NCBI RefSeq assembly: GCF_019175385.1 | Contig: NC_083346.1 | Span: 88,426,543-88,490,542 of the forward strand | Source of the DNA: Lycium barbarum | Lineage: Eukaryota > Streptophyta > Magnoliopsida > Solanales > Solanaceae | Direction of reading: 5' to 3' | DNA: 64,000 nt | Translations under genes and position numbers: made by a program | Part shown: in pieces, positions 6,386-58,124 of the stretch | Layout: the number at the start of each line of letters is the position of its first letter | Position numbering within the stretch: position 1 is the stretch's first letter | Notes under the pieces: generated by a model | The model's input: the letters and a program-made list of their open reading frames with translations, nothing else | What the model was told of the DNA's origin: nothing | Database searches by the model: none

Positions 6386-6499
6386 TTTGTGCTTACCTAC
6401 TAGAAAAGAGGGTCAGAAATAATCTTTCCTAGACTCTGGCTCTATCGCACGATCTAAGATAGAAGGAAAGGTCAATGATTCCTAAATGTCCTGCAGCCT

Positions 6500-6539
6500 C
6501 CTGTTTATAAGTGTGGCCGGCTTCACACCCATAAACAGG
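6500..6539 (-). promoter_or_regulatory. Leader hairpin with palindromic loop (element C), dimerisation-signal-like
   Basis: In element orientation: CCTGTTTAT then GGGTGTG, an 8-nt loop AAGCCGGC, then CACACTT and ATAAACAGG. This gives a 16-bp stem (two G-T wobbles) closing a loop that contains the 6-nt palindrome GCCGGC (plus strand 6516-6521). It lies about 40 nt downstream of the PBS. The same structure with different palindromes occurs in elements A and H. Confidence 0.75.
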
Positions 6540-6580
6540 ACTCTACCAGACACAGTCTATAGACAGTCCCTAGGATGAAC

Positions 6581-34512: not shown

Positions 34513-35938
34513 TATGAGATGTATAGCCGCTCCTAGTACCTTTTGGGTTAGGTATCGTGTCGCTTGGGAGTTGCCCTTTTTCCTTTGGGTTTTTCTCCCG
34601 AGGAAGGTCCCTTATTTGTGATTCTAGCTTTTGAAATGATGTGGAGTGAACCCACTAATTGGGTCAAGTTCTTCATCGAAGTGTCGGACTTCTCTTGATT
34701 TTCCAATACTGGCTCCAGCATACTCTCCAATTTAGAATTCCCTTGATCATTTGGCGGACCTTCTCGCCAATTTTGTGAGTTGGATGATTGGCCCTTTGGT
34801 GGAAGATAAGGATTGTACCTCTTATCTCCGAAGTTATTATTGTTGTTTTAATTCCCTTGATTCAAATTACCTCGATCATTTATTCCATATTGATTATCTT
34901 GAACTTGCGGTTGAGGTTTCCATTGATTTTGATAGCCGGCCCCTTGAAAGTTGTCTTTGATAACCCCCTTGAGAATTGTTGACATAGTTGGCCTCCTCAT
35001 ATTGCATAGGGGGTCCCTCTTGAAATGGACATTGTTGGGTTTGGTACATGCCATTTGGTAAAGGTTGCATTTCCTCTACTTCATTCACTTTCTTTGTATC
35101 ATCCTCCGCGAACCTCTTGGTTAACAAGCTAATGTTAGTAGAAAGTTGAGAAATCGTTTGGTGTCTCTCTTGATTCTCCTTCACTGTATTGTTCAATAAA
35201 GGAGCCCCATATGCTACACCATCTGTGCGACCCGAGTGTCGTGCTAGATTTTGTGTAGTAAGTTTGTCAAGAAATTGGGTGGTTCGTGCAAATGACTTGT
35301 CCATAAAACACCCATTGGCCGCATTATTTGCCACAGATTGGGTCATAGGATCCAGCCTCGTACAGAAGTTCTTCATAAATATATTCTCCGAAAAACCATG
35401 ATTCGAAGACCTCATCAAATATTCCTTGAACCTCTCCCAAGCTTCATAAAGTTCTTTCCCCAGAAGTTGCTTGAATTCAAATATCGCGTCTCTGAGTTTT
35501 GCTTTCTTGCTCAGAGGAAACCATTTCTTGAAAACATTCACTAGCTCGCCCCAAGTATGAATGGAATTTTGGGGCAACTTCTCAAGCTAAGTTCTTGCTT
35601 TCCCGGCTAAAGAGTATTTGAAGACCCTCAACTGTACTGCATCTGGCAACACATTGTTCTGCTAGTGTGTCTGACAGACAAATTCTTCAAATATTGATGC
35701 GGCTCATCATCCGTGGAATTGCGAAAGTAACACTCACGCTTTAGCGTTGCATAGATGCTACTATCAATCTTGAAATTAGTTGCATCAACCCTTGGAGGAA
35801 TAGTAGCATTTGCATAATCAATTTCTTGGATAATATCCGCAAACACATTTTCCTCTTAAGGTTCGGCTGGCGACGGTGGGACTACTTTGGCTGCCCGAGT
35901 CGATGGTGCTCCACGTTCTTCTCCTCATCCTCCCATGT
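34513..35938 (-). pseudogene. Element E gag (Athila-like)
   Basis: Right to left: MGG-like start near 35,938, a stop, then FADIIQEIDYANATIPPRV, NFKIDSSIYATLKRECYF, DDEPHQYLKN; after a frameshift the long frame 35,577-34,894 with NSIHTWGELVNVFKKWFPLSKKAKLRD, KELYEAWERFKEYL, and GGYQRQ. The C-terminal part has ENQEKSDTSMKNLTQLVGSLH and the conserved LPSDTIPNPKG near 34,555. No zinc knuckle is seen, which is usual for Athila Gag. Frameshifts and stops make it non-functional. Confidence 0.85.
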
Positions 35939-37923: not shown

Positions 37924-38049
37924 TCTCTATAAAACATATATCGAAATACGAGTTAAATACGAGCTAAACTCAAGCTCTTGTGACTCAGCTCTATAGCACG
38001 ATCTGGAGTATGAACAAAAAGTAACCATTCCTAAATGCTCTGTAGCTTC

Positions 38050-38092
38050 CTGTTTATAAATGTGGTGCACAACACATTCATAAGAACGACTC
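38050..38092 (-). promoter_or_regulatory. Leader hairpin with palindromic loop (element H)
   Basis: In element orientation the 8-nt loop is TTGTGCAC, containing GTGCAC (plus strand 38,065-38,070), closed by an AATGTG/CACATT stem (plus-strand letters) and a weaker TTAT/ATAA extension. It lies about 45 nt downstream of the PBS, just after the shared block TGTCTAGTAGAGTC. Confidence 0.7.
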
Positions 38093-38132
38093 TACTAGAC
38101 ATGGCTTGTGAAACTCCCTAGGACACAGACCT

Positions 38133-38144
38133 GCTATGATACCG
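38133..38144 (-). other. Primer-binding site of element H
   Basis: The reverse complement reads CGGTATCATAGC, two mismatches from the tRNA-Met PBS, 4 nt inside the LTR. Confidence 0.8.
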
Positions 38145-41527: not shown

Positions 41528-42040
41528 GTTATTGTTACACCTCGAAAATTTCTCGTTAACGTACAGTGAGTAGACTAACGAAGGGCACGACGTATACGAT
41601 GTTTTGATAAGTAAGAAATAGCATTTGATGATCCTAATCGATATTTCAAAGACATTTGAGGTGAGGGAAGAAAGTTGTCAAGGAAACCAAGGGATATGTT
41701 GTGTGTCGGGAAAGATTTACGAGTACCGAATTAATGATGGCTTAATGATGTTTTGGAGAAGATTTATAATGTCCCTTAGATTGATATTGAGGTGTTAAAC
41801 AAGTGTCAAGAAGGTTCCATAAGGATTGAAGGTCAAATGAGTCGACGAGAAAGAACTTCGGAAAGCTGGGCATTATACGGCCCAACATATTGGCCGTATA
41901 AAACATAATGGTCGTATGTTAGGCCGTATGTTGTGCCCAGAATGGAGCCTTCACTGGACCAAATCTACGGCCATATATACGGCCAGTATAATTTATACAG
42001 ACCGTATGTTGGTCCGTAGAATCTGCTCGAGACATTTCTA

Positions 42041-42053
42041 AATTAAATATAAG
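42041..42053 (+). promoter_or_regulatory. LTR core promoter (TATA-like) of element A
   Basis: AATTAAATATAAGG, followed within 60 bp by the C/T-rich sequence CATTTCCTCACTTCAC. Palindromic ACGG/CCGT elements end about 25 bp upstream. The 3' LTR has the same at about 56,124-56,136. Confidence 0.6.
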
Positions 42054-42804
42054 GGACCAACCTCATTTCATTTATTTCATTTCCTCACTTCACACTTCAA
42101 GAATTCTCTAGAACCCTCTCCACTCTTCATCCACAAGAACCCAAGAGAAATCTATGATCAACTTCATCAAACCAACAAAATCAAGTGTAAGAAACTCATT
42201 GAAGTTCATCTAAGCTAAGAAATTCCAATGGAAGTGAACTAGGGTTTTGGTGCAAGAAGAGTATTTCCACTCAAGGCTTATTCTTCCATTATCTAAGGTA
42301 AGTTTTATGATCATTCCATGTTGTTTAAGGTAATGATAGGTTGAAAGACTTGGATTGTAGAAGGAAATAGAAAATGGGTCACGAATGTAAGAATAATGAC
42401 ATTTTGAGTAGTAGTTTGGAATGAGTCATGAATATTGATATGTTGTGATTATAAGTATGCTATAAGTGACATTCAGAACATGGGATACGTATTATATGTG
42501 AGAAAATGCAATAGTGAACTATGACCACGATTATGGAGGAATTGAAGTGAAATTGTGAAATGTGGATAATGTAGATGAATGATGATTGTTGTTTATAATA
42601 TTGTGAATGTTGTTATGGATGTTTGGGAGTTGATATGTAAAATGAGGAAAGTTTTATAAATAAAGGAAATGATGTCCAATTTTCTCTAGCATTAGTAACA
42701 CGTTCATATAATCGATTAGCTAATGTTGATGTGAATTCTCTTAAAGGTAGAAACGTGAGCGTTGAAAAAGAACAATCAAGCGATAGAATTGTTAAACGAA
42801 AGAG

Positions 42805-43677
42805 GTATGTAAGGCTAATCCTATCCTTCTAAGGCATGACTCCTATGGCATGAATCTTTCTATTTTTCCATGATCTTCCTAAATAACGAAAATTATGAGT
42901 CCATGACTATAAAGAGCTACATACGCATATGATAATGGAAGGAGATACGAGACGAGCATGATAAAGATGATGATGAGTTAAGTATAAAGAATCTTAAAGT
43001 GAGGTACGATGTCCATGAGGTTAATGATCCTAAGTATGGTTCCATTGATGCTTTTCCTTGTGTACACTCACCTTAAAATGTTAGTCCCCTCAAGGTGAGA
43101 TATGATTATTATGATCACTCCATAATGTAATCGAGGGTTCACGACCTTATGTCACCCCGACATAGCCATAGTTGCCTTCAAGTTCTAATGTATGTTTTGA
43201 TGATAAAGATGTAATGATGCTAAGTTATGATAAGTCTATGATGTGATCACGATGATACAATTCCATCGTGCCTAAATGGCCGGACAAGTCATCGCAAAGA
43301 CGGGCTGCTTGTGATTCCACCGTGCCCAAATGGCCGTACATGTCACCGCTAAGGCGGGCTGCTTATGATTCCACCGCGCCACGAAGGCCGGACATGATCA
43401 CCACTAGTGGGCAGCATATGATGGTTACCCGGACGCGGGTTAACGATGATGATATATATTTATATGACACGATGATGCATGCGCTATGATGATACCTGTA
43501 CTACGATTATATATGATATATGTGTGAAATGTATCCACCCTTAAAAGTCACGGAGGTTATACCTTCATCTTATGTCTTATGATTTCTCTATTATGTTCAT
43601 TCCATTCATGCCTTACACACCAGTACAATGTTCATACTGACGTTCGTTTTCTTTGGACGCTGTGTTCATGCCCACAG
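42805..43677 (+). other. Putative intron within the 5' LTR of element A
   Basis: Donor AG|GTATGTAAGG at 42,805, branch-point-like TACTGAC at 43,635-43,641, acceptor CCCACAG|GTA at 43,677. The same trio is found in the other Tekay-type LTRs of the window at corresponding places, while the sequence between is variable. It is a prediction from conserved signals; no transcript evidence is available here. Confidence 0.5.
43266..43425. repeat. Three about 54-bp tandem subrepeats in LTR A
   Basis: ATTCCACCGTGCCCAAATGG..GGCGGGCTGCTTGTG-type units; the same in the 3' LTR (57,305-57,470) and reversed in the solo LTR (48,985-49,125). Confidence 0.92.
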
Positions 43678-44085: not shown

Positions 44086-44097
44086 TGGTATCAGAGC
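44086..44097 (+). other. Primer-binding site of element A
   Basis: TGGTATCAGAGC, exact tRNA-Met-type PBS, 4 nt after the 5' LTR. Confidence 0.93.
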
Positions 44098-44140
44098 AGT
44101 TCAGTCCTAGGAAGTGTCTACGAGCCGTGTCTAGTAGAGT

Positions 44141-44179
44141 CTTGTTTATGGTGTGTTGCGCGCCACACTAATAAACAGG
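44141..44179 (+). promoter_or_regulatory. Leader hairpin with palindromic loop (element A)
   Basis: CTTGTTTAT-GGTGTG, loop TTGCGCGC, CACAC-TA-ATAAACAGG: a stem of about 15 bp with one bulge, with palindrome GCGCGC in the loop (44,158-44,163). It is 43 nt downstream of the PBS and upstream of the gag ATG (44,288). Confidence 0.78.
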
Positions 44180-44287
44180 AGGCTGCACGGCATTTAGGAA
44201 AAATGACCATTCTTCTTCTTATGAGATCGTGCGATAGAGCCGTGTATAAGATTTTCTCCTCCCTAATAGTGTATTATGATTTCAGAA

Positions 44288-45475
44288 ATGCCGCCAAAGG
44301 GAAAAGTTACAGCCGCCCAGAAGGGCAAGACTACGATGAAAAGGCGGGTAGAAAGGGAGCCGCCAATGAATGCAGAAGAGGGGGAATAACATAATGAGGC
44401 TCCATCTAATACTTCTCCTACTCAGCCTATTATAGAAGAACAAGAGGGAGCTTCAGCTCCAGCTCCTATGCCTCCAGTTCCTCCACCGGCTACTTCAGGT
44501 AAACAAGTGACCGAGGTTATTCATCTATTGACGCAGTTAGTTGCCGCCCAGGCACAGCGGCAGGGTTCGGGTTCAAGTGACAGGTCCGTTAGTACTAGAG
44601 CCCGTGATTTCATGAGTTTGAATCCTCCGGAGTTTTTTGAGTCAAAGCCAGATGAAGACCCGCAAAGTTTTATTGATGAAATGTTGAGAACATTAAAGAT
44701 TATTCATGCCTCCGAAACTGAATTTGTGGAGTTAGCATCTTATAGACTCCGAGATGTGGTGATATTATGGTACAATAATTGGATATCATCAAGAAAAGAG
44801 AATACGCCTCCTCCCGTTTGGCAAGAATTTGTAGAGGCCTTCATCCGCCACTATTTGCCACCCAAGGTCCGCCAAGCTAGAGCGGATAGATTTTTAAATT
44901 TGAAACAAGGAAATATGAGTGCTCGGGAGTATAGCCTTCAGTTCAATTCATTGGCTAGATATGCTCCGACTATGGTGGCCGACATGGGAGATAGGGTGCA
45001 CAGGTTTGTGAGTGGCTTAGGGCCACATTTATTTAAGGATTGTTTGACGGCTTCGTTGCAAGATGGGAAGGATATTTCCTACATTCAAGCCCATGCCCAG
45101 AATTTAGAAGGACAACAACATCCGCAAAGAGGTGATCATGATATTGATAGAGGGCAAAACAAGAGGGCCAGATCTATGGGGCCAGGTAGTGATTATAAAG
45201 GGGGATCAAGGCAGACATATTCTAGACACTCAGGCCAGTCGGCGACTAGTGCACCTCCACGATTTGCAGGTAGGAGATTTGACCGCTCCATTCCTTTAGG
45301 ATAGGGTCAGAGTTCGAAAGCTTCAGGTTCCCAATTTAGGGGTGATTATAGCCAGAGGAGACCACCAGTCCCACGATGTAGCCAGTGCAGAAAATTACAC
45401 TCGGGGCCATGTCGCCAGGGCACAGATGCTTGCTATGTTTGTGGACAGACTAGGCACTTGATGCGTGATTGTCCC
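44288..45475 (+). pseudogene. Element A gag
   Basis: The structural polyprotein, forming the particle and binding RNA. The natural start is ATG 44,288 (MPPKGKVTAA); a TAA at 44,387-44,389 closes it, and the frame reopens from 44,468. The capsid-like domain has LNPPEFFESKPDEDPQSF, VILWYNNWISSR, FIRHYLPPKVRQARADRF and LKQGNMSAREYSLQF. A second stop, TAG at 45,302, precedes a CCHC zinc knuckle ([14 protein letters not shown], 45,431-45,472). Gag is in the same frame as pol, so the ancestral product was one Gag-Pol protein. Both stops are explained by CAA/CAG to TAA/TAG changes. Confidence 0.92.
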
Positions 45476-47383
45476 TCGATGTATGGTAGAAGTGGGGTTC
45501 AGCCCACAGGATCAGCAGCTGGTTCCTCTTCAGTGCGCCCGGTAGGGCAGACTCCCCAGATCCAAGCAGGTCGAGGCAGAGGGGGAGCATCTACTTCAAG
45601 TGCCACTCAGCCCCGTATGTATGCTTTAGCCAGACGACAGGATCTTGAATCCTCCCCGGATATGGTTATAGGTATATTATCCGTATTTTCCCATGATGTG
45701 TATGCATTGATAGATCCGGGTTCTACCCTATCTTATATTACTCTGTATGTTGCTGGTCGTATTGGGGTGAAACCTGAGCCAATTAAACCTTTTAAGGTAT
45801 CTACTCTGGTTGGTGATCCCGTGATAGCTAGACAAGTGTATAAAAATTGTGTAATTCTGATATGCGACCGCCAGACTAAAGCTGATTTAGTTGAGCTGGA
45901 AATGCTAGATTTCGATGTGATTATGGGTATGGATTGGTTGGCCTCATGTTATGCTAATGTTGATTGCCGAATGAAAGTAGTTCGATTTCAATTTTCGGGA
46001 GAGCCCGTGCTTGAATGGAAGGGTAACACAGCATCTCCAAGGGGTAGGTTTATTTCCTACCTTAAGGCAAGAAAGATGATAGTAAAGGGCTATATTTATC
46101 ACTTAGTCCGATTTCATGACACCGAAGCAGAGTCGCCAACTTTCCAATCCGTTCCGGTAGTGAATGAATTTCCTGATGTATTTCCAGATGAACTTCCAGG
46201 CCTTCCTCCGGAGAGAGATATTAATTTCGCTATTGATGTGTTGCCGGACACCAAGCCTATTTCTATTCCTCCTTACCGAATGGCTCCAGCAGAATTGAAA
46301 GAGCTAAAGGCACAGTTGAAAGATTTGCTTGAGAAGGGGTTTATTTTACCCAGTGCATCACCATGGGGAGCACCAATCCTATTTGTGAGGAAGAAAGATG
46401 GTTCCTTACGGATATGTATTGATTATAGGCAGTTGAATAAGGTGACGATAAAGAACAAATATCCTCTTCCGAGAATTGATGATTTATTTGATCAACTACA
46501 GGGTGCCAAGTGGTTTTTCAAAATAGACTTGAGGTTAGGTTATCACCAAGTGAGAGTTAAAGAAGAAGATATTCCCAAAACAGCTTTCAGAACGACATAT
46601 GGCCATTATGAATTCCGGGTGATGTCATTTGGGTTAACTAATGCTCCGGCAGTGTTCATCGATTTGATGAATAATGTATTCAGGCCTCTCTTGGATTTAT
46701 TTGAAATAGTATTCGTTGACGATATTCTGGTGTACTCTCGCACAGAATCAGAACATGCAGACCATTTACGTATTGTCCTTGGAATTCTTCGAACTCGAGA
46801 ATTGTATGCAAAATTTTTAAAGTGCGAGTTTTGGCTGAATTCTGTGACATTTTTGGGCCATGTTATTTCAGATGATGGCATTCGAGTTGATACTCAGAAA
46901 ATTGAAGCTGTGAAGACTTGGCCAAGGCCTACGACGCCCACAGAAGTCCGTAGTTTTTTGGGATTGGCAGGTTACTATAGAAGGTTCGTAGAAGGATTTT
47001 CCTTTATTTCAGCCCCATTGACGAAGCTAACCCAAAAGTTAGCTAAGTTTCAGTGGAATGATTCTTGTGAACGCAGCTTCCAAGAGTTGAAGGACAGATT
47101 AACCTCAGCCCCAATCTTGACACTCCCAGAAGGGCCAGATGGTTATGTTGTATATCGTGATGCTTTCGGTGTTGGGTTAGGATGTGTGTTAATGCAGCAC
47201 GGTAAAGTCATCTCTTATGCCTCGAGGCAACTGCGGAAACATGAAAAGAACTACCCAACTCATGATCTCGAATTGGCTGCAGTTATTCATGCATTAAAGA
47301 TGTGGAGACATTATTTGTATGGTGTGCATGTTGATATCTATACAGATCACAAGAGTCTTTAATACATTTTTCAACAGAAGGAG
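45476..47383 (+). pseudogene. Element A protease, reverse transcriptase and RNase H
   Basis: Continuous frame with gag. Protease: [13 protein letters not shown] (Asp codon 45,713), then [71 protein letters not shown] and the catalytic [10 protein letters not shown] (about 46,709-46,738). Connection: [15 protein letters not shown]. RNase [19 protein letters not shown] (Asp; CDAS altered to RDAF), [14 protein letters not shown] (Glu), IYTDHKSL (Asp). A TAA at 47,360-47,362 stands where QYIFQQKELN begins, so it is a CAA to TAA nonsense change. Confidence 0.93.
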
Positions 47384-48287
47384 TTGAATCTGCGGCAGAG
47401 GCGGTGGTTAGAATTATTGAAAGATTATGATGTGAGTATTTTATACCACCCCGGGAAGGCAAATGTAGTAGCTGATGCGCTTAGCCGCCGATTGATGGGC
47501 AGCCTATGTGAAGCTCCTCCGGAAAAGAAAGAATTAATTCATGAGCTCCACCAACTAGCTAATCTTGGAGTACGTTTAATTGATTCAGGTAGTGCAGGAA
47601 TTGGTATTAATAATCCCACAGTTTCGTCCCTGAATATGGAAGTAAAAAAGCGTCAATATGAAGATCCTCAGTTAAGCCATTATAGAGACACATTTCATGA
47701 AAAAGAGGAGTCCCCATTTGAAACTTCTATGGATGGAATTCTTAGATACCGAGGCAGGCTATGTGTTCTGAATGTTACAGAATTACGTCGCCGAATTCTA
47801 GAAGAAGCTCATTATTCTCGGTATTCTATTCATCCAGGAGCGACAAAGATGTATTATGATCTCAAGTTAATTTATTGGTGGGATGGAATGAAAAGAGACA
47901 TAGCAGAATTTGTAGCTCAATGTCCAAATTGCCAGCAAGTGAAAATCGAACATCAAAAGCCAGGAGGATTATTGCAAGCAATGGAAATCCCTACTTGGAA
48001 ATGGGAAGTGATCAACATGGATTTTATTGTGGGATTACCCCGTTCCCGAGGCAAGTATGATTCCATATGGGTGATCGTGAACAGAATCACGAAAGCAGCT
48101 CATTTTCTTCCAGTCAGAACCACATACTCAGCAAAAGATTATGCAAGGTTGTATCTCAAGGAGATTATGCGACTCTATGGTATTCCGATATCCATTATCA
48201 CAGATAGAGGAGCGCAATTTACAGCCAAGTTCTGGAAATCTTTCCAAGAAGGCCTAGGTACTCAAGTAAAGCTTAGCACGGCATTTC
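47384..48287 (+). pseudogene. Element A integrase, N-terminal part
   Basis: Begins with the RNase H end (NVVADALSRR). The HHCC finger is HYSRYSIHPGATKM...CPNCQQVK; the catalytic core has NMDFIVGLPRS (Asp codon 48,020) and IITDRGAQFTAKFW (Asp codon 48,203). The frame is broken after TAF by an antisense solo LTR at 48,288. The third acidic residue is at 51,031. After removing the insert and one TSD copy the two acidic residues are exactly 36 codons apart, i.e. D,D35E. Confidence 0.93.
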
Positions 48288-51002
48288 TGTCACGACCCGA
48301 CTAAGGGCCGTGACGGGTACCCGGGGCTAACAACCGAGCACCACTCATTTCCGTACTCGTCATAGTCATTGTACAATTCTTTACCATTCATATATTCATA
48401 ATCATAAGACAACCATTTTTCATTCGAAAAACATAATAAATTTTATATACATAATCCCTTCGGCTATCAAAATAATAATATATACACAATCGTAGCATCG
48501 TGACACTATACTACCCACACATGCGTATCTACGAGCCTCTACTAGAGTACTAGACATATGGACGGGACAAGACCCCGTCGTGACCAAAATACATATACAT
48601 ATATATATACACACACAAAAGAATAAACCAAGTAGCACCTCCGGAATAATGGAGTGCTCTCAAATCAGCTGACAGCTCCTACGAGTCTGGATCAAGCTCA
48701 CTTCCCTGTCTACCTGTGGGCATGAACACAGCGTCCAAAGAAAACGGACGTCAGTACGAACATTGTACTGAGTATGTAAGACAAGAACGAAGTAAACATA
48801 CTAGAAGAATCATGAGCCTTAAGAGGAAGGTATAACCTGCATGAGTTTCATAGGTGAATACATCTCATACATATATCGTATATTTGTATAAACATAGTAC
48901 ATATGTCATCACAACGCATATATCATCACATCATAATGCTCATCGTTAACCCGCGTCCGGGTAACCATCATATGCCGCCCACTAGTGGTGATCATGTCCG
49001 GCCTTCTAGGCACGGTGTATACATAGCAGCCGGTCTTAACGGTGACATGCCCGGCCATTTAGGCACGGTGTATTCATAGCAGCCCGCATTAGCGGTGACA
49101 TGTCCGGCCATCTAGGCACGGTGTAATCATATCATCATATACCCATCGTAACTCAACCCTTTCATACATAGCATAGGTAGGTTATCAACTTACATTATTG
49201 ATCATCTCATAGACGTATCCTGACTTAGCATCATTATACATTTATCATTAAAAACATACACTAGAATTTGGAGGCAATTATGGCAATGTCGGGGTGACAT
49301 AAGGTCGTGAGCCCCCGATTATATTATGGAGTAATCATCAACATCATATCTCACCTTGAAGGAACAAACAATTTAAGGTGAGTGTACGCAAAGAGAAGCA
49401 TCAACGAAACCAGACTTAGAATTATTAGTTTCATGGACATCGTATCTTACACAAGGATTACTCATACTTATATTCATCATCATCACTACCATGCTCGTAT
49501 CGTATTTCCTTTCTTAATCATGTGCGTATGTAACTTTGTATATTCATGGACTCATAGTCTCTATCGTGTAGAATGATCACAGAGAATTAAGAAGATTCAT
49601 GCCTTAGAAGGAAAGGATTAGCCTTACATACCTTTTTCGTTTAACTAATCTATCGCTTGCTTGCTCTCCTTCAATGCCCACGTTTCTACCTTCAAGGGAA
49701 GTCGCATGAGCATTAGCTAATCGATTACTTAAACGTACTTACTAAAGCTAAAGAGAATCGGGTAGCATTTCCTTTGTTTATACAACTTTTCCCCATATCA
49801 TATATCAACTTCCAACATCCATGACAACATTCACAATATCGCAAACAACAATCACCATTCGTCTACATTACCCATATTTCACCTTTTCACTCCAATTTCT
49901 CCATAATCATGGTCATAGTTCATTATTGCATTTTCTCACATATAATACTTATTCCATGTTCTATATGCCGTTCATAACATACTTACAATCACAACATACC
50001 AATATTCATAATTCACCCCATTTACTACTCAACAATGACACTATTCACTCATTCATGACCCATTTCCTATATCTTCTACAATCCATGTGTTTCAACTTTT
50101 CAAGTACCTTAAATAACATGTAAATACCATAAAACATACTTTAGATAGTGTAGGAATAAGCTTTGGGTGGAACTACTTCACTTGAGCAAAACCCTAGTTT
50201 CACTTTCTATGGAATTTCTTGACTTGGATGGACTTTGATGTGTTTCTCACACTTAGTTTTGTTGGTTTGATGAAGTTGATCATCAATTTCTCATAATTTC
50301 GTGTATATTGAGTGTGTGGAAGATTCTAGAGAATTCTTGAGTTGTGTAGAAGAAGAATGAAATGAAATTAATGTGGTGAAGTCCTTATATCAACTTTTAA
50401 AAACTGTCCCGACGAGATTCTACAGACACTTATACGGTCCGTATAAATTTATACGGTCCGTATAAGTGACCGTGAAACTGCTCCAGTAGTCATCCCATTC
50501 TGCGTCGATTTCACGGCACATTATACCGTCCGTATAAATTTATACGGTCCGTATAAGTGACCGTGAAATCACCCCCCTCCACAACTTCATTCTGTGACAA
50601 TCCTATGGTCCATTATACTGACCGTATAACATTATACGGACCGTATAATCGACCGTATAACTCATCCTTTCACTGATCTTTTTCTTGTCACTTCATTTGA
50701 TCTTCAATCCTTAGGGAACCTTCTTAGCACTTGTTTATCACTTCATTAACAATCGGAGGGACGTTATAACTCTCTCTCCAAAGCACCTTTTAATTATCAT
50801 TAACTCGCTACTCGTAATTTCTTTCCGTTACACATCGTATGTCTTGCCTTTTCTAGGCCAACCTTCTTCCCTTACGTTAAATGTCTTTGAATCTTGATTA
50901 GGATCCTCAAATGCTATTTCTTACTTATCGAAACAACGTATACTCATGCCTTTTGCTAGTCTATTCACTGTACGTTTATGGGGAATTTTCCGAGGTGTAA
51001 CA
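48288..51002 (-). mobile_element. Antisense solo LTR of family A inside integrase (2,715 bp)
   Basis: TGTCACGACCC...GAGGTGTAACA with TSD ATTTC at 48,283-48,287 and 51,003-51,007. Clearly the same LTR family as its host element, but diverged. TATA-like box near 50,381-50,392 (minus strand) and TACGGTCCGTA at 50,433-50,443, 50,452-50,462 and 50,543-50,553. Putative intron 49,631 to 48,714 (minus strand). Confidence 0.95.
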
Positions 51003-51007
51003 ATTTC

Positions 51008-51530
51008 ATTCGCAGACTGATGGGCAAGCCGAACGTACCATTCAGACCTTGGAAGATATGCTACGAGCATGTGTTCTAGATTTCGGTGGTAGTTGGGATG
51101 ACCACTTACCTCTAATTGAGTTTGCATACAACAATAGCTACCATTCTAGTATCCAAATGGCTCCGTATGAAGCTTTAAATGGAAGTGTAGATCCCCAATT
51201 GGATAGTTTGAAATTGGAGAAGTACAGCTAATAGGCCCTGAGTTGATTCAACAAGCAGTAGAAAAAGTCAAGGTGATCCTAGATCGATTATTGACAGCCC
51301 AAAGTCGCCAAAAATCTTATGCGGACAACCGCCGGCGGGACTTAGAATTTCAAGTTGATAATTGGGTATTCTTAAAGGTGTCACCAATGAAAGGAGGGAT
51401 GAGATTTGGTAAGAAAGGAAATTTAAGTCCCCGATACATTGGACCCTATAAGATTATCCGCAAGGTAGGTCAAGTAGCTTATGAATTGGACTTGCCTCCA
51501 GATCTTGAATCGATCCATCCAGTTTTCCAT
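51008..51530 (+). pseudogene. Element A integrase, middle part
   Basis: [19 protein letters not shown] (catalytic Glu codon 51,031), [26 protein letters not shown] single-base deletion near 51,182-51,186 shifts the frame, and TGG has become TAG at 51,204. The frame then continues IGPELIQQAVEKV, QKSYADNRRRDLEF, GNLSPRYIGPYKI, and HPVFHVS, the GPY/F module. It is cut here by solo LTR B2. Confidence 0.92.
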
Positions 51531-52106
51531 GTCTCTGTCACGACCCGTCTAGGGGCCGTGACGAGTACCCGATACTTGTACCGAGCACCCCTTGTCTATC
51601 GTTTTACCTTTACCTCTTAGCAAGCCATGTAAACAGAGCCATTTTTTTTTTTTGAACATTAACATTAGCGGCGTCATTCTGAACATAGACTAATAAACTT
51701 CGTTATCACTTATACATCAACATTAGCATGCCAAAACACCATATATCTAACTGTACTTAACTGACTGTACATAACTGTCTACGAGCCTCTAGACGTAGTA
51801 CACTTATACATAGAAAGGGTCGGGTGCTGCCGTGCCCGAATATCCATACACAAAATAGTACCGCAGAAGTGAGGCTCCGGAACAACTGGAGCGCTGTCAA
51901 CACTGCTGGTAAGGCTCCTAAGGATCAAATCCGCCTATCTGCTGATCTGCGCGGCATGAAACACAGCGTCCACAAGAAGGGACGTCAGTACGAATAGTGT
52001 ACCGAGTATGTAAGGCATGAAAGATAACACTAGCAGTAACATAATGTATAATTAATAATGTCATGGAGTCATAGAATATAGAAGATAGAACATATCTCAT
52101 GTCATA

Positions 52107-55626: not shown

Positions 55627-58124
55627 TGTTACACCTCGAAAATTTTCCATTAATGTACAGTGAATAGACTAACGAAGGGCACGACGTATACAATGTTTTG
55701 ATAAGTAAGAAATAGCATTTGAGGATCCTAATCGAGATTTCAAAGACATTTGAGGTGAGGGAAGAAAGTTGTCAAGGAAAGCGAGGGATATGTTGTGTGT
55801 CCGGAAAGATTTACGAGTACCGAATTAATGATGGCTTAATGATGTTTTGGAGAAGATTTATAATGTCCCTTAGATTGGTAATGAGGTGTTAAACAAGTGT
55901 CAAGAAGGTTCCATAAGGATTGGAGGTCAAACGAGTCGACAAGAACGAACTTCGGAAAGCTGGGCATTATACGGCCCAACATACTGGCCGTATAAAACAT
56001 ACTGGCCTTATGTTAGGCCGTATGTTGTGCCCAGAATGGAGCCTTCACTGGACCAAATCTACGGCCAGTATAATTTATACGGACCGTATGTTGGTCCGTA
56101 GAATCTGGTCGGGACAGTTCTAAATTAAATATAAGGGACTAACCTCATTTCATTTATTTCATTTCCTCACTTCACCCTTCAAGAATTCTCTAGAACCCTC
56201 TCCACTCTTCATCCACAAGAACCCAAGAGAAATCTATGATCAACTTCATCAAACCAACAAAATCAAGTATAAGAAACTCATTGAAGTTCATCTAAGCCAA
56301 GAAATTCGAATGGAAGTGAACTAGGGTTTTGGTGCAAGAAGAGTATTTCCACTCAAGGCTTATTCTTCCATTATCTAAGGTGAGTTTTATGATCATTCCA
56401 TGTTGTTTAAGGTTATGAGAGGTTGAAAGACTTGGATTGTAGAAGGAAATAGAAAATGGGTCATGAATGTAAGAATAATGACATTTTGAGTAGTAGTTTG
56501 AATGAGTCATGAATATTGATATGTTGTGATTATAAGTATGCTATAAGTGACATTCAGAACATGGGATACGTATTATATGTGAGAAAATGCAATAGTGAAC
56601 TATGACTACGATTATGGAGGAATTGAAGTGAAATTGTGAAATGTGGATAATGTAGATGAATGATGATTGTTGTTTATAATATTGTGAATGTTGTTATGGA
56701 TGTTTGGGAGTTGATATGTAAAATGAGGAAAGTTGTATAAATAAAGGAAATGCTGCCCAGGTTTCTCTAGCATTAGTAACACGTTCATATAATCGATTAG
56801 CTAATGTTGATGCGAATTCTCTTGAAGGTAGAAACGTGAGCGTTGAAGAAGAACAATCAAGCGATAGAATTGTTAAACGAAAGAGGTATGTAAGGCTATT
56901 CCTTTCCTTCTAAGGCATGACTCCTATGGCATGAATCTTCCTATTTTTTCATGATCTTCCTAAATAACGAAAATTATGAGTCCATGACTATAAAGAGCTA
57001 CATACACATATGATAAAGGAAGGAGATACGATACGAGCATGATAAAGATGATGATGAGTTAAGTATAAAGAATCTTAAAGTGAGGTACGATGTCCATGAG
57101 GTTAATGATCCTAAGTATAGTTCCATTGATGATTTTCCTTGTGTACACTCACCTTAAAATGTTAGTCCCCTCAAGGTGAGATATGATGATTATGATCACT
57201 CCATAATGTAATCGGGGGTTCATGACCTTATGTCACCCCGACATAGCCATAGTTGCCTTCAAGTTCTAATGTATGATAAGTCTATGATGTGCTCACGATG
57301 ATACAATTCCACCGTGCCTAAATGGCCGGACATGTCACCGCAAAGGCGGGCTGCTTGTGATTCCACCGTGCCTAAATGGCCGGACATGTCAACGCTAAGG
57401 CGGGATACTTATGATTCCACCGCGCCTAGAAGGCCGGACATGATCACCACTAGTGGGCGGCATATGATGGTTACCCGGACGCGGGTTAACGATGATGATA
57501 TATATATATGATACGATGATGTATGCGCTATGATGATACATGTACTACAATTATATATGATATATGTGTGAAATGTATCCACCCTTAAAAGTCACGCAGG
57601 TTATATCTTCATCTTATATCTTATGATTTCTCTATTATGTTCATTCCATTCATGCCTTACATACTCAGTACAATGTTCATACTGACGTCCGTTTTCTTTG
57701 GACGCTGTGTTCATGCCCACAAGTAGACAGGGAGGTGATCCAAACTCGTAGGAGCTATTATCTGACTTGAGAGCACTCCTTGTTCCAGAGGTGCCATTGA
57801 TTTATTCTTTTGTGTATATACATGTATTTTGGGCACGGCGGGATCATGTCCCGTCCCTATGTCTGGCACTCTAGTAGAAGCTCGTAGATACGTATGTGTG
57901 GGTAGTATGGTCTCACGATGTCCTTATTGTATGTACATTATTTTGATAGCCGAAGGGCTTATGTATATAAAAGTAATTATGTTTCAAAGTGAAAAGTGAT
58001 TTTTCCTATGATTTGAGTATAAGATTAATGAATGAACGCTTGATGAGTACGATGGTTAATGGTATGAGCGGTGCTTGGTGGTTAGCCCCGGATACCCGTC
58101 ATGGCCCCTAGTCGGGTCGTGACA
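55627..58124 (+). repeat. Element A 3' LTR (2,498 bp)
   Basis: TGTTACACC...GGGTCGTGACA, matching the 5' LTR, and followed by TSD GTTAT. The intron acceptor reads CACAAG instead of CCACAG (57,723); the donor is intact at 56,886. Confidence 0.93.

What the first reader, a model, noticed from the sequence alone, without database searches (positions are those of the whole stretch)
44141..44179. Kissing-loop (dimerisation-signal-like) hairpins in the leaders of three Tekay-type families
Elements A, C (6500-6539, minus) and H (38,050-38,092, minus) each have, 40-50 nt downstream of the PBS, a stem closing an 8-nt loop made of two A/T bases and a 6-nt palindrome: TTGCGCGC, AAGCCGGC, TTGTGCAC. The palindrome differs each time yet stays a palindrome, and the stems stay paired (16 bp with two wobbles in C). 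A shared TGTCTRGTAGAGTC-like block precedes it. HIV-1 dimerisation loops use GCGCGC or GUGCAC in the same position relative to the PBS. I know of no description of this in plant Ty3/gypsy elements. The sequence shows the structure; the packaging or dimerisation role is inference.
Basis: partly seen in the sequence, partly recalled or inferred. Interest (0 to 1): 0.9.

Follow-up and report, generated by a model that had tools for sequence, protein, structure and literature searches.

The report
Self-pairing RNA hairpin in plant retrotransposons
An abundant group of plant jumping genes carries, just after its primer site, a long RNA hairpin whose loop changes sequence between families but stays able to pair with a second copy of itself, as in the HIV signal that joins two genome copies, so these elements probably pair their genomes in a similar way.

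Summary
All three hairpins are in the window; the "shared block" before them is the 5' arm of the same ~67-nt hairpin. The host genome (held here, 1.67 Gb) has 23,685 matches to a leader pattern that leaves upper stem and loop free, against 4 for the reversed pattern. Of 98 readable loops among the 100 printed, 83 are perfect 6-nt palindromes. In 108 distinct hairpins, loop positions 2 and 5 are complementary in 105, with all four Watson-Crick pairs, and adjacent positions 3 and 4 in 100. Such bases cannot pair within one hairpin, so the loop evolves as if it pairs with itself in another molecule. Stems covary too. Nine palindromes recur: GTGCAC, GCGCGC, GAGCTC, GACGTC, GCCGGC, GGGCCC, GGCGCC, TGATCA, TGGCCA; one family with a fixed stem uses three. 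PBS sites without the hairpin profile are at chance level. Best reading: a kissing-loop dimerisation signal, working like HIV-1 SL1, in a plant Ty3/gypsy lineage. Dimerisation and packaging are inferred. One species only. The paper lists I saw held no report of it in plant Ty3/gypsy elements.

The parts
44127..44193 (+). Element A: whole leader hairpin (outer stem GTGTC/GGCAT, GTAG/CTGC, 2x2 purine internal loop, 16-bp upper stem with one bulge, 8-nt loop)
   Evidence: sequence, RNA fold, pair statistics on relatives
44156..44163 (+). Element A: apical loop TTGCGCGC; palindrome GCGCGC 44158-44163
44086..44097 (+). Element A: primer binding site TGGTATCAGAGC, 29 nt upstream of the hairpin
   Evidence: complementarity to the initiator-Met tRNA 3' end is recalled
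6486..6553 (-). Element C: whole leader hairpin; upper stem 17 bp with two G.U
6516..6523 (-). Element C: apical loop AAGCCGGC; palindrome GCCGGC 6516-6521
   Evidence: recurrent subfamily in the genome
6582..6593 (-). Element C: primer binding site (one mismatch to TGGTATCAGAGC)
38035..38102 (-). Element H: whole leader hairpin (upper stem 11 bp, its lower part decayed)
38065..38072 (-). Element H: apical loop TTGTGCAC; palindrome GTGCAC 38065-38070
38133..38144 (-). Element H: primer binding site (two mismatches)
44390..45304 (+). Element A: gag piece (Retrotrans_gag, Ty3_capsid), downstream of the leader
45305..47362 (+). Element A: piece with weak zinc knuckle, protease, RT and RNase H; best solved relative is yeast Ty3 RT
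47363..48304 (+). Element A: integrase piece (H2C2; rve below its cut-off)

Best explanation
The hairpin is an RNA kissing-loop dimerisation signal of a Ty3/gypsy lineage that is abundant in this plant genome. SHOWN by sequence and computation: between PBS and gag a ~67-nt hairpin is kept by structure; its 7-9-nt apical loop carries a 6-nt palindrome; stems covary with many G.U pairs; the palindrome has switched repeatedly among at least nine sequences while staying self-complementary. INFERRED: the palindrome of one genomic RNA pairs with the same palindrome of a second RNA (kissing complex), perhaps converting to an extended duplex through the long stem, with the recurrent 2x2 purine internal loop as a candidate Gag/nucleocapsid contact. 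Two co-packaged RNAs would then allow template switching, and pairing might mark the RNA for the particle rather than for translation.
For: Stem: 2044 of 2155 cells pair (94.8%; slid partners 33-56%; 3' letters shuffled within columns 88.3%, maximum 89.1%), 135 cells changed on both sides. The 5' letters of 6 of the 20 pairs were fixed by the search pattern in the set; the 14 other pairs alone give 1424 of 1509 (94.4%; slid 35-58%; shuffled 85.3%, maximum 86.6%), 129 cells changed on both sides, 229 G.U cells. Loop: p2-p5 complementary in 105 of 108 (TA 41, CG 36, AT 24, GC 4), p3-p4 in 100 of 108 (GC 92, CG 7, TA 1), p1-p6 in 95 of 107; together 92.9% against shuffle mean 66.4%, maximum 71.8%, and 5-65% slid. 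p3 and p4 are neighbours, so cannot pair in cis. Fixed stem, free loop: the 7-nt-loop family is palindromic at 42 of 59 places (column shuffle mean 30%, maximum 47%); the family of C at 64 of 100 (shuffle mean 35, maximum 50), and 32 of its 36 exceptions are one or two C>T/G>A steps from a palindrome. Two more families have 9-nt loops with TGATCA and TGGCCA. Of 88 PBS sites, 27 have the hairpin profile; 19 of these pass a strict palindrome-in-loop test against 1.8 in shuffles (maximum 6), 7 of the 61 others against 5.0 (maximum 12). Flank tree: 15 palindrome changes. Ten palindromes (nine recurrent and GATATC) have mean stability rank 18.7 of 64, P 0.004. HIV-1 loops GCGCGC, GUGCAC and GUGCGC, the need for central G-C pairs, and an SL1 internal loop bound by Gag: PMC5874298 (passages).
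Against: No biochemical test. One genome only. Copies are related, so cells are not independent events and shuffles ignore relatedness; leaders may recombine, so the 15 tree changes may include swaps. Stem columns are so conserved that column shuffles already reach 85-88%. 17 of 59, 36 of 100 and 15 of 98 loops are not palindromic. GATATC and GCATGC may be mutational decay. TGATCA is A/U-rich, against the HIV-1 preference. The non-palindromes GGAGCC (L330, L331) and GTACAC (two copies) recur. Flanking purines, important in HIV-1, are absent in A and H. Whole-leader folding z-scores of A and H are modest.
Confidence: 0.85

Rival explanations
1. A Gag-binding packaging hairpin recognised as a single RNA; the palindromic loop is incidental.
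For: A 2x2 purine internal loop shows in the folds of A and C and of most of the other copies folded; in the set its 5' side was fixed by the search pattern, so its uniformity there says nothing. Internal loops bind Gag in HIV-1 (PMC5874298 passages). It could coexist with dimerisation.
Against: It does not predict nine different self-complementary loop words, nor covariation of adjacent bases 3-4.
Confidence: 0.08
2. The palindrome acts in DNA: a binding site for a dimeric protein (transcription, integration or silencing).
For: Palindromic repeated motifs in plant Sireviruses (Ty1/copia) were likened to transcriptional cis elements (PMC2829016 passages).
Against: A DNA-binding dimer would be expected to want one sequence, not nine; the site tips a stem that keeps pairing with many G.U cells (229 of 1509), which would be mismatches in DNA.
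Confidence: 0.03
3. The loop pairs with another site (elsewhere in the same RNA, a tRNA or a host RNA) and palindromy is a by-product.
For: Yeast Ty1 uses complementary, non-identical hairpin loops (PMC5454406 passages); GGAGCC and GGCTCC in the 7-nt-loop family are complementary to each other.
Against: Pairing to a different partner does not need self-complementarity. Such a partner was not searched for.
Confidence: 0.03
4. No function: palindromes reflect common descent and chance.
For: Many copies are near-identical; most loops are GTGCAC or GCGCGC (67 of 98).
Against: Different palindromes on near-identical leaders (L318 and L319); 71% against 30% expected in one family with a fixed stem; PBS sites without the profile at chance level.
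Confidence: 0.01

Closest known systems
HIV-1 SL1 dimerisation initiation site
   Same: Hairpin in the 5' leader downstream of the PBS; 6-nt self-complementary loop; GCGCGC and GUGCAC, the commonest loops, and GUGCGC (5 of 100) are the three that prevail in HIV-1; internal loop below the upper stem (PMC5874298 passages).
   Different: Loop mostly 8 nt, with 7- and 9-nt families; flanks TT/TA/AA/AT instead of purines; more palindromes, all within one host genome; no dimer shown. HIV-1's loop and stem lengths are recalled, not looked up.
Yeast Ty3 DS/PAL6 (CUGCAG)
   Same: Ty3/gypsy element; palindrome in the apical part of a short hairpin near the 5' end, proposed to start kissing dimers (PMC11381356 passages).
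   Different: Ty3's PAL6 lies at nt 391-396 and was found by probing and deletion in one element; here the hairpin lies next to the PBS and the evidence is covariation over many families. Homology of the two hairpins was not tested.
Yeast Ty1 SL1a/SL3a kissing complex
   Same: Loop-loop contact proposed to start dimerisation and packaging (PMC5454406 passages).
   Different: Two different complementary loops, Ty1/copia.
Barley BARE1/BARE2 dimerisation and packaging signals
   Same: Plant LTR retrotransposon; [quoted passage not shown]
   Different: Ty1/copia; the passage gives no hairpin or covariation; sequences were not compared here.

Membership tests
Retroelement dimerisation initiation site (HIV-1 SL1 type) | Hairpin in the 5' leader, 3' of the PBS and 5' of gag | tested here: met
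   PBS and hairpin in A, C and H; gag piece downstream shown for A only (44390)
Retroelement dimerisation initiation site (HIV-1 SL1 type) | Self-complementary 6-nt apical loop kept across relatives | tested here: met
   83 of 98; 89 of 108 distinct; 42 of 59; 64 of 100
Retroelement dimerisation initiation site (HIV-1 SL1 type) | Stem covariation | tested here: met
   R-scape itself was not available
Retroelement dimerisation initiation site (HIV-1 SL1 type) | Central G-C pairs, at most one A-U pair type | tested here: inconclusive
   8 of 9 recurrent palindromes fit; TGATCA does not; rule from PMC5874298
Retroelement dimerisation initiation site (HIV-1 SL1 type) | Unpaired purines flanking the palindrome | tested here: not met
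   TT in A and H, AA only in C
Retroelement dimerisation initiation site (HIV-1 SL1 type) | Palindrome-dependent RNA dimers and effect on packaging | not testable with these tools
   needs gels and particles
Ty3/gypsy (Metaviridae) element | gag-PR-RT-RH-INT order and Ty3-like RT | tested here: met
   element A pieces; for C no minus-strand frame of 120 aa was found, for H only two, one gag-like at 34897-35586, not shown to belong to H
Tekay chromovirus lineage | Chromodomain at the integrase C-terminus | tested here: inconclusive
   Tf2-1-type SH3 domain at 51207-51617; no chromodomain was reported in that piece and the frame ends at 51620
Tekay chromovirus lineage | RT/INT phylogeny inside Tekay | not tested
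   no named reference elements on hand

The most novel reading that the evidence does not exclude
The palindrome is a swappable self-recognition code: one retroelement lineage in one plant genome has split into co-packaging and recombination groups by repeatedly changing a 6-nt loop among nine or more self-complementary words, so that each family dimerises mainly with itself.
Probability: 0.35. Interest if true: 0.9.

Novelty: new member of a known kind. Interest (0 to 1): 0.8.

Why it matters
LTR retrotransposons make up much of many plant genomes, yet a 2025 review of their life cycle in plant cells has no word beginning with 'dimer' in its main text (PMC12786077, term count and passages). 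The finding gives a natural mutational scan of a likely dimerisation loop (thousands of copies, nine recurrent palindromes) and makes genome pairing, packaging choice and recombination between families directly testable with ~120-nt leader RNAs. It would extend the retrovirus-style kissing loop to a plant Ty3/gypsy lineage.

Tried and rejected
Other species: pattern scans of viral contigs (75 stretches, 26) and genome contigs (107) gave no plant leaders that I could recognise; none of the 133 stretches had a PBS-like word nearby. The 75 stretches were only checked for the second pattern. Rfam: one match, E 3.8, in the 501 bases around element A. The first stability ranking failed and was redone. 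A first tree script stopped on one locus and was redone; six loci are in that tree twice (L217-L222 = L248, L249, L273, L275, L280, L283). A free-loop count for the 9-nt-loop family did not complete.

Rows dropped before counts: 2 of 100 without an assignable loop, L258 dropped as misaligned and L251, L317, L322 skipped by the cutting rule (all four carry palindromes), L003 not entered (hairpin cut by other DNA). The extra leaders were named by me from those seen. The 20 loci were picked by me for diversity out of the 100 printed, so they show kinds, not frequencies. Of the first 100 PBS sites (53,725 in all) 88 were used: of the 12 left out, 2 overlap L306, 8 were already held as hairpin leaders (L224-L231) and 2 were not fetched, so 27 of 88 understates the share of hairpin leaders. 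In one search the sense strand of places that match on both strands was taken, by hand, as the one with the odd loop base 5' of the palindrome-like word; for some places one search confirms it.

Full report
WHAT IS THERE. In each element a PBS (exact in A, one mismatch in C, two in H) is followed about 30-40 nt later by one long imperfect hairpin. From outside inwards (folds): GTGTC/TGTCT pairs with GGCAT/GGACA, one or two mismatches, GTAG pairs with CTRC, a 2x2 internal loop (AG opposite RG), then an upper stem (A 16 bp with a bulge, C 17 bp, H 11 bp plus a decayed part) and an 8-nt loop.

HOW COMMON. The window's genome is held (1.67 Gb). A pattern that fixes only GTAGAGTC on the 5' side and CATTTAGGA on the 3' side has 11,831 + 11,854 matches; the same pattern read backwards has 2 + 2. 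A second pattern for diverged leaders has 645 + 643 against 1 + 0. Only the first 100 places of each search are printed; the statistics below rest on those.

THE LOOP. Of the 100 hairpins printed, 98 have a readable 8-nt loop and 83 of these are perfect 6-nt palindromes: GTGCAC 39, GCGCGC 28, GAGCTC 13, GACGTC 2, GATATC 1; 15 are not. Shuffling columns gives a mean of 27% and a maximum of 43%. I aligned 109 distinct hairpins by sequence alone and counted pairs in 108. The p2-p5 pair is Watson-Crick in 105 of 108 with all four kinds; p3-p4 in 100 of 108 with three kinds; p1-p6 in 95 of 107, always G-C. The bases p3 and p4 are neighbours, and p2 and p5 have only two bases between them, so a hairpin loop cannot pair them in cis. 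This is the central argument: the loop evolves as if it pairs with itself in another molecule.

THE STEM. Over 20 pairs 2044 of 2155 cells pair, against 33-56% with slid partners and 88.3% (maximum 89.1%) when letters are shuffled within columns. Six of these pairs have 5' letters fixed by the search pattern. The other 14 give 1424 of 1509 (94.4%; slid 35-58%; shuffled 85.3%, maximum 86.6%), with 129 cells changed on both sides and 229 G.U cells.

FIXED STEM, FREE LOOP. In the 7-nt-loop family (1,168 + 1,194 matches, many of them one place on both strands) the 100 printed lines are 59 places: GGGCCC 25, GGCGCC 10, GCGCGC 5, GAGCTC 1 and one loop GCGCGCG read as CGCGCG, so 42 of 59 palindromic, 17 not (column shuffle mean 30%, maximum 47%). 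In the family of element C (2,983 matches) 64 of the first 100 are palindromic: GCGCGC 39, GCCGGC 14, GTGCAC 8, GCATGC 3. Of the 36 others, 32 are one or two C>T or G>A steps from GCGCGC, GTGCAC or GCCGGC, as methyl-cytosine decay after insertion would leave (inference). GCATGC can arise in the same way, so I do not count it among the nine. Some GCCGGC copies lie in a tandem array; leaving four of them out gives 60 of 96.

MORE FAMILIES. Single leaders show GGCGCC in a different stem (L256), GACGTC (L268), GTGCAC with a re-paired GATATG/CATATC stem (L251). Two further families have a 9-nt loop: CCTGATCAC (L258, L333-L335) and ACTGGCCAC (L336, L338-L340); the isolated folds of L334, L338 and L340 do not show that loop. 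L318 and L319 have almost the same leader but GGGCCC and GCGCGC. Nine palindromes thus recur at two or more loci.

CONTROLS. Of 88 leaders from the first 100 exact PBS sites, 27 match the hairpin profile; 19 of these pass a strict palindrome-in-loop test, against 1.8 in dinucleotide shuffles (maximum 6). Of the 61 others 7 pass, against 5.0 (maximum 12); one of the seven, L258, is a distant relative. The eight profile matches that fail are L248, L250, L268 and L313, which keep the palindrome but have a broken or short apical stem, L270, L312 and L324, one change from a palindrome, and L003, cut by other DNA (sequences). So the signal belongs to this lineage and not to PBS sites in general. A tree built on the 3' flank alone (60 rows, six loci twice) needs 15 changes of palindrome, least possible 7, shuffled mean 23.8; support is uneven and recombination between leaders is not excluded.

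WHAT IT MOST LIKELY DOES. Nine words that share little but self-complementarity, at the tip of a kept stem next to the PBS, fit a kissing-loop dimerisation site. The many G.U cells fit RNA. A review reports that HIV-1 uses GCGCGC, GUGCAC and GUGCGC, that selected loops keep the central G-C pairs, that more than one A-U pair replicates poorly, and that the SL1 internal loop is a major Gag site (PMC5874298; passages). Eight of the nine palindromes here fit that rule; TGATCA does not. The palindromes lean to the stable end (mean rank 18.7 of 64, P 0.004, ten palindromes incl. GATATC). The HIV-1 flanking purines are not kept here.

PLACE AMONG KNOWN SYSTEMS. It works like HIV-1 SL1 and, more distantly, like yeast Ty3 DS/PAL6 (PMC11381356 passages). 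Element A is Ty3/gypsy by domain order and its RT is closest to Ty3 RT in the PDB (E 7e-79). Literature searches (open-licence PMC papers, lists partly capped) showed no plant Ty3/gypsy dimerisation hairpin among the titles and abstracts listed; BARE2 (Ty1/copia) is said to have conserved dimerisation and packaging signals (PMC3735527, passage). Hence: a new member of a known kind, with unusually rich natural covariation.

LIMITS. One genome, no biochemistry, no R-scape; counts are of related copies; the printed lists are the first places on chromosome C1 (one also reaches C2), not random draws.

Noticed in passing
window 44225-44240 (+) and loci: A second recurrent leader block, GATCGTGCGATAGAGC, 3' of the hairpin: ATCGTGC in 42 of 54 distinct loci, the full 16-mer in 25 of 54; in the GAGCTC and GACGTC rows only 1 of 6 has ATCGTGC. 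A further cis signal?
   Followed up: partly
G000:C1:25236270-25264351: Six C-family hairpins on one strand, 5.2-5.7 kb apart: probably a tandem array of one element family.
   Followed up: no
L330, L331 and G000:C1:72048544-72048574: In the 7-nt-loop family the non-palindromic loops GGAGCC (two copies) and GGCTCC (one copy) are complementary to each other: possible hetero-kissing pair, or chance.
   Followed up: no
G000:C1:17644637 and G000:C1:21641968 (hairpins): Two copies with loop TTGTACAC: the 6-mer in register is no palindrome but the word one base upstream, TGTACA, is.
   Followed up: no
7-nt-loop family: The unpaired 5' loop base goes with the palindrome: A with GGGCCC, T with GCGCGC and GGCGCC.
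   Followed up: no
window 48304-51207: Between A's integrase piece and its SH3 piece (from 51207) lies DNA with minus-strand stretches similar to A's LTR region (48698-50402 against 42035-43198 and 57553-57738): probably a nested insertion.
   Followed up: no
L002, L008, L254, L261, L267, L291, L292, L316: A recurrent different leader (PBS then AACAGGTTGTGTTGTGATTT), without this hairpin.
   Followed up: no
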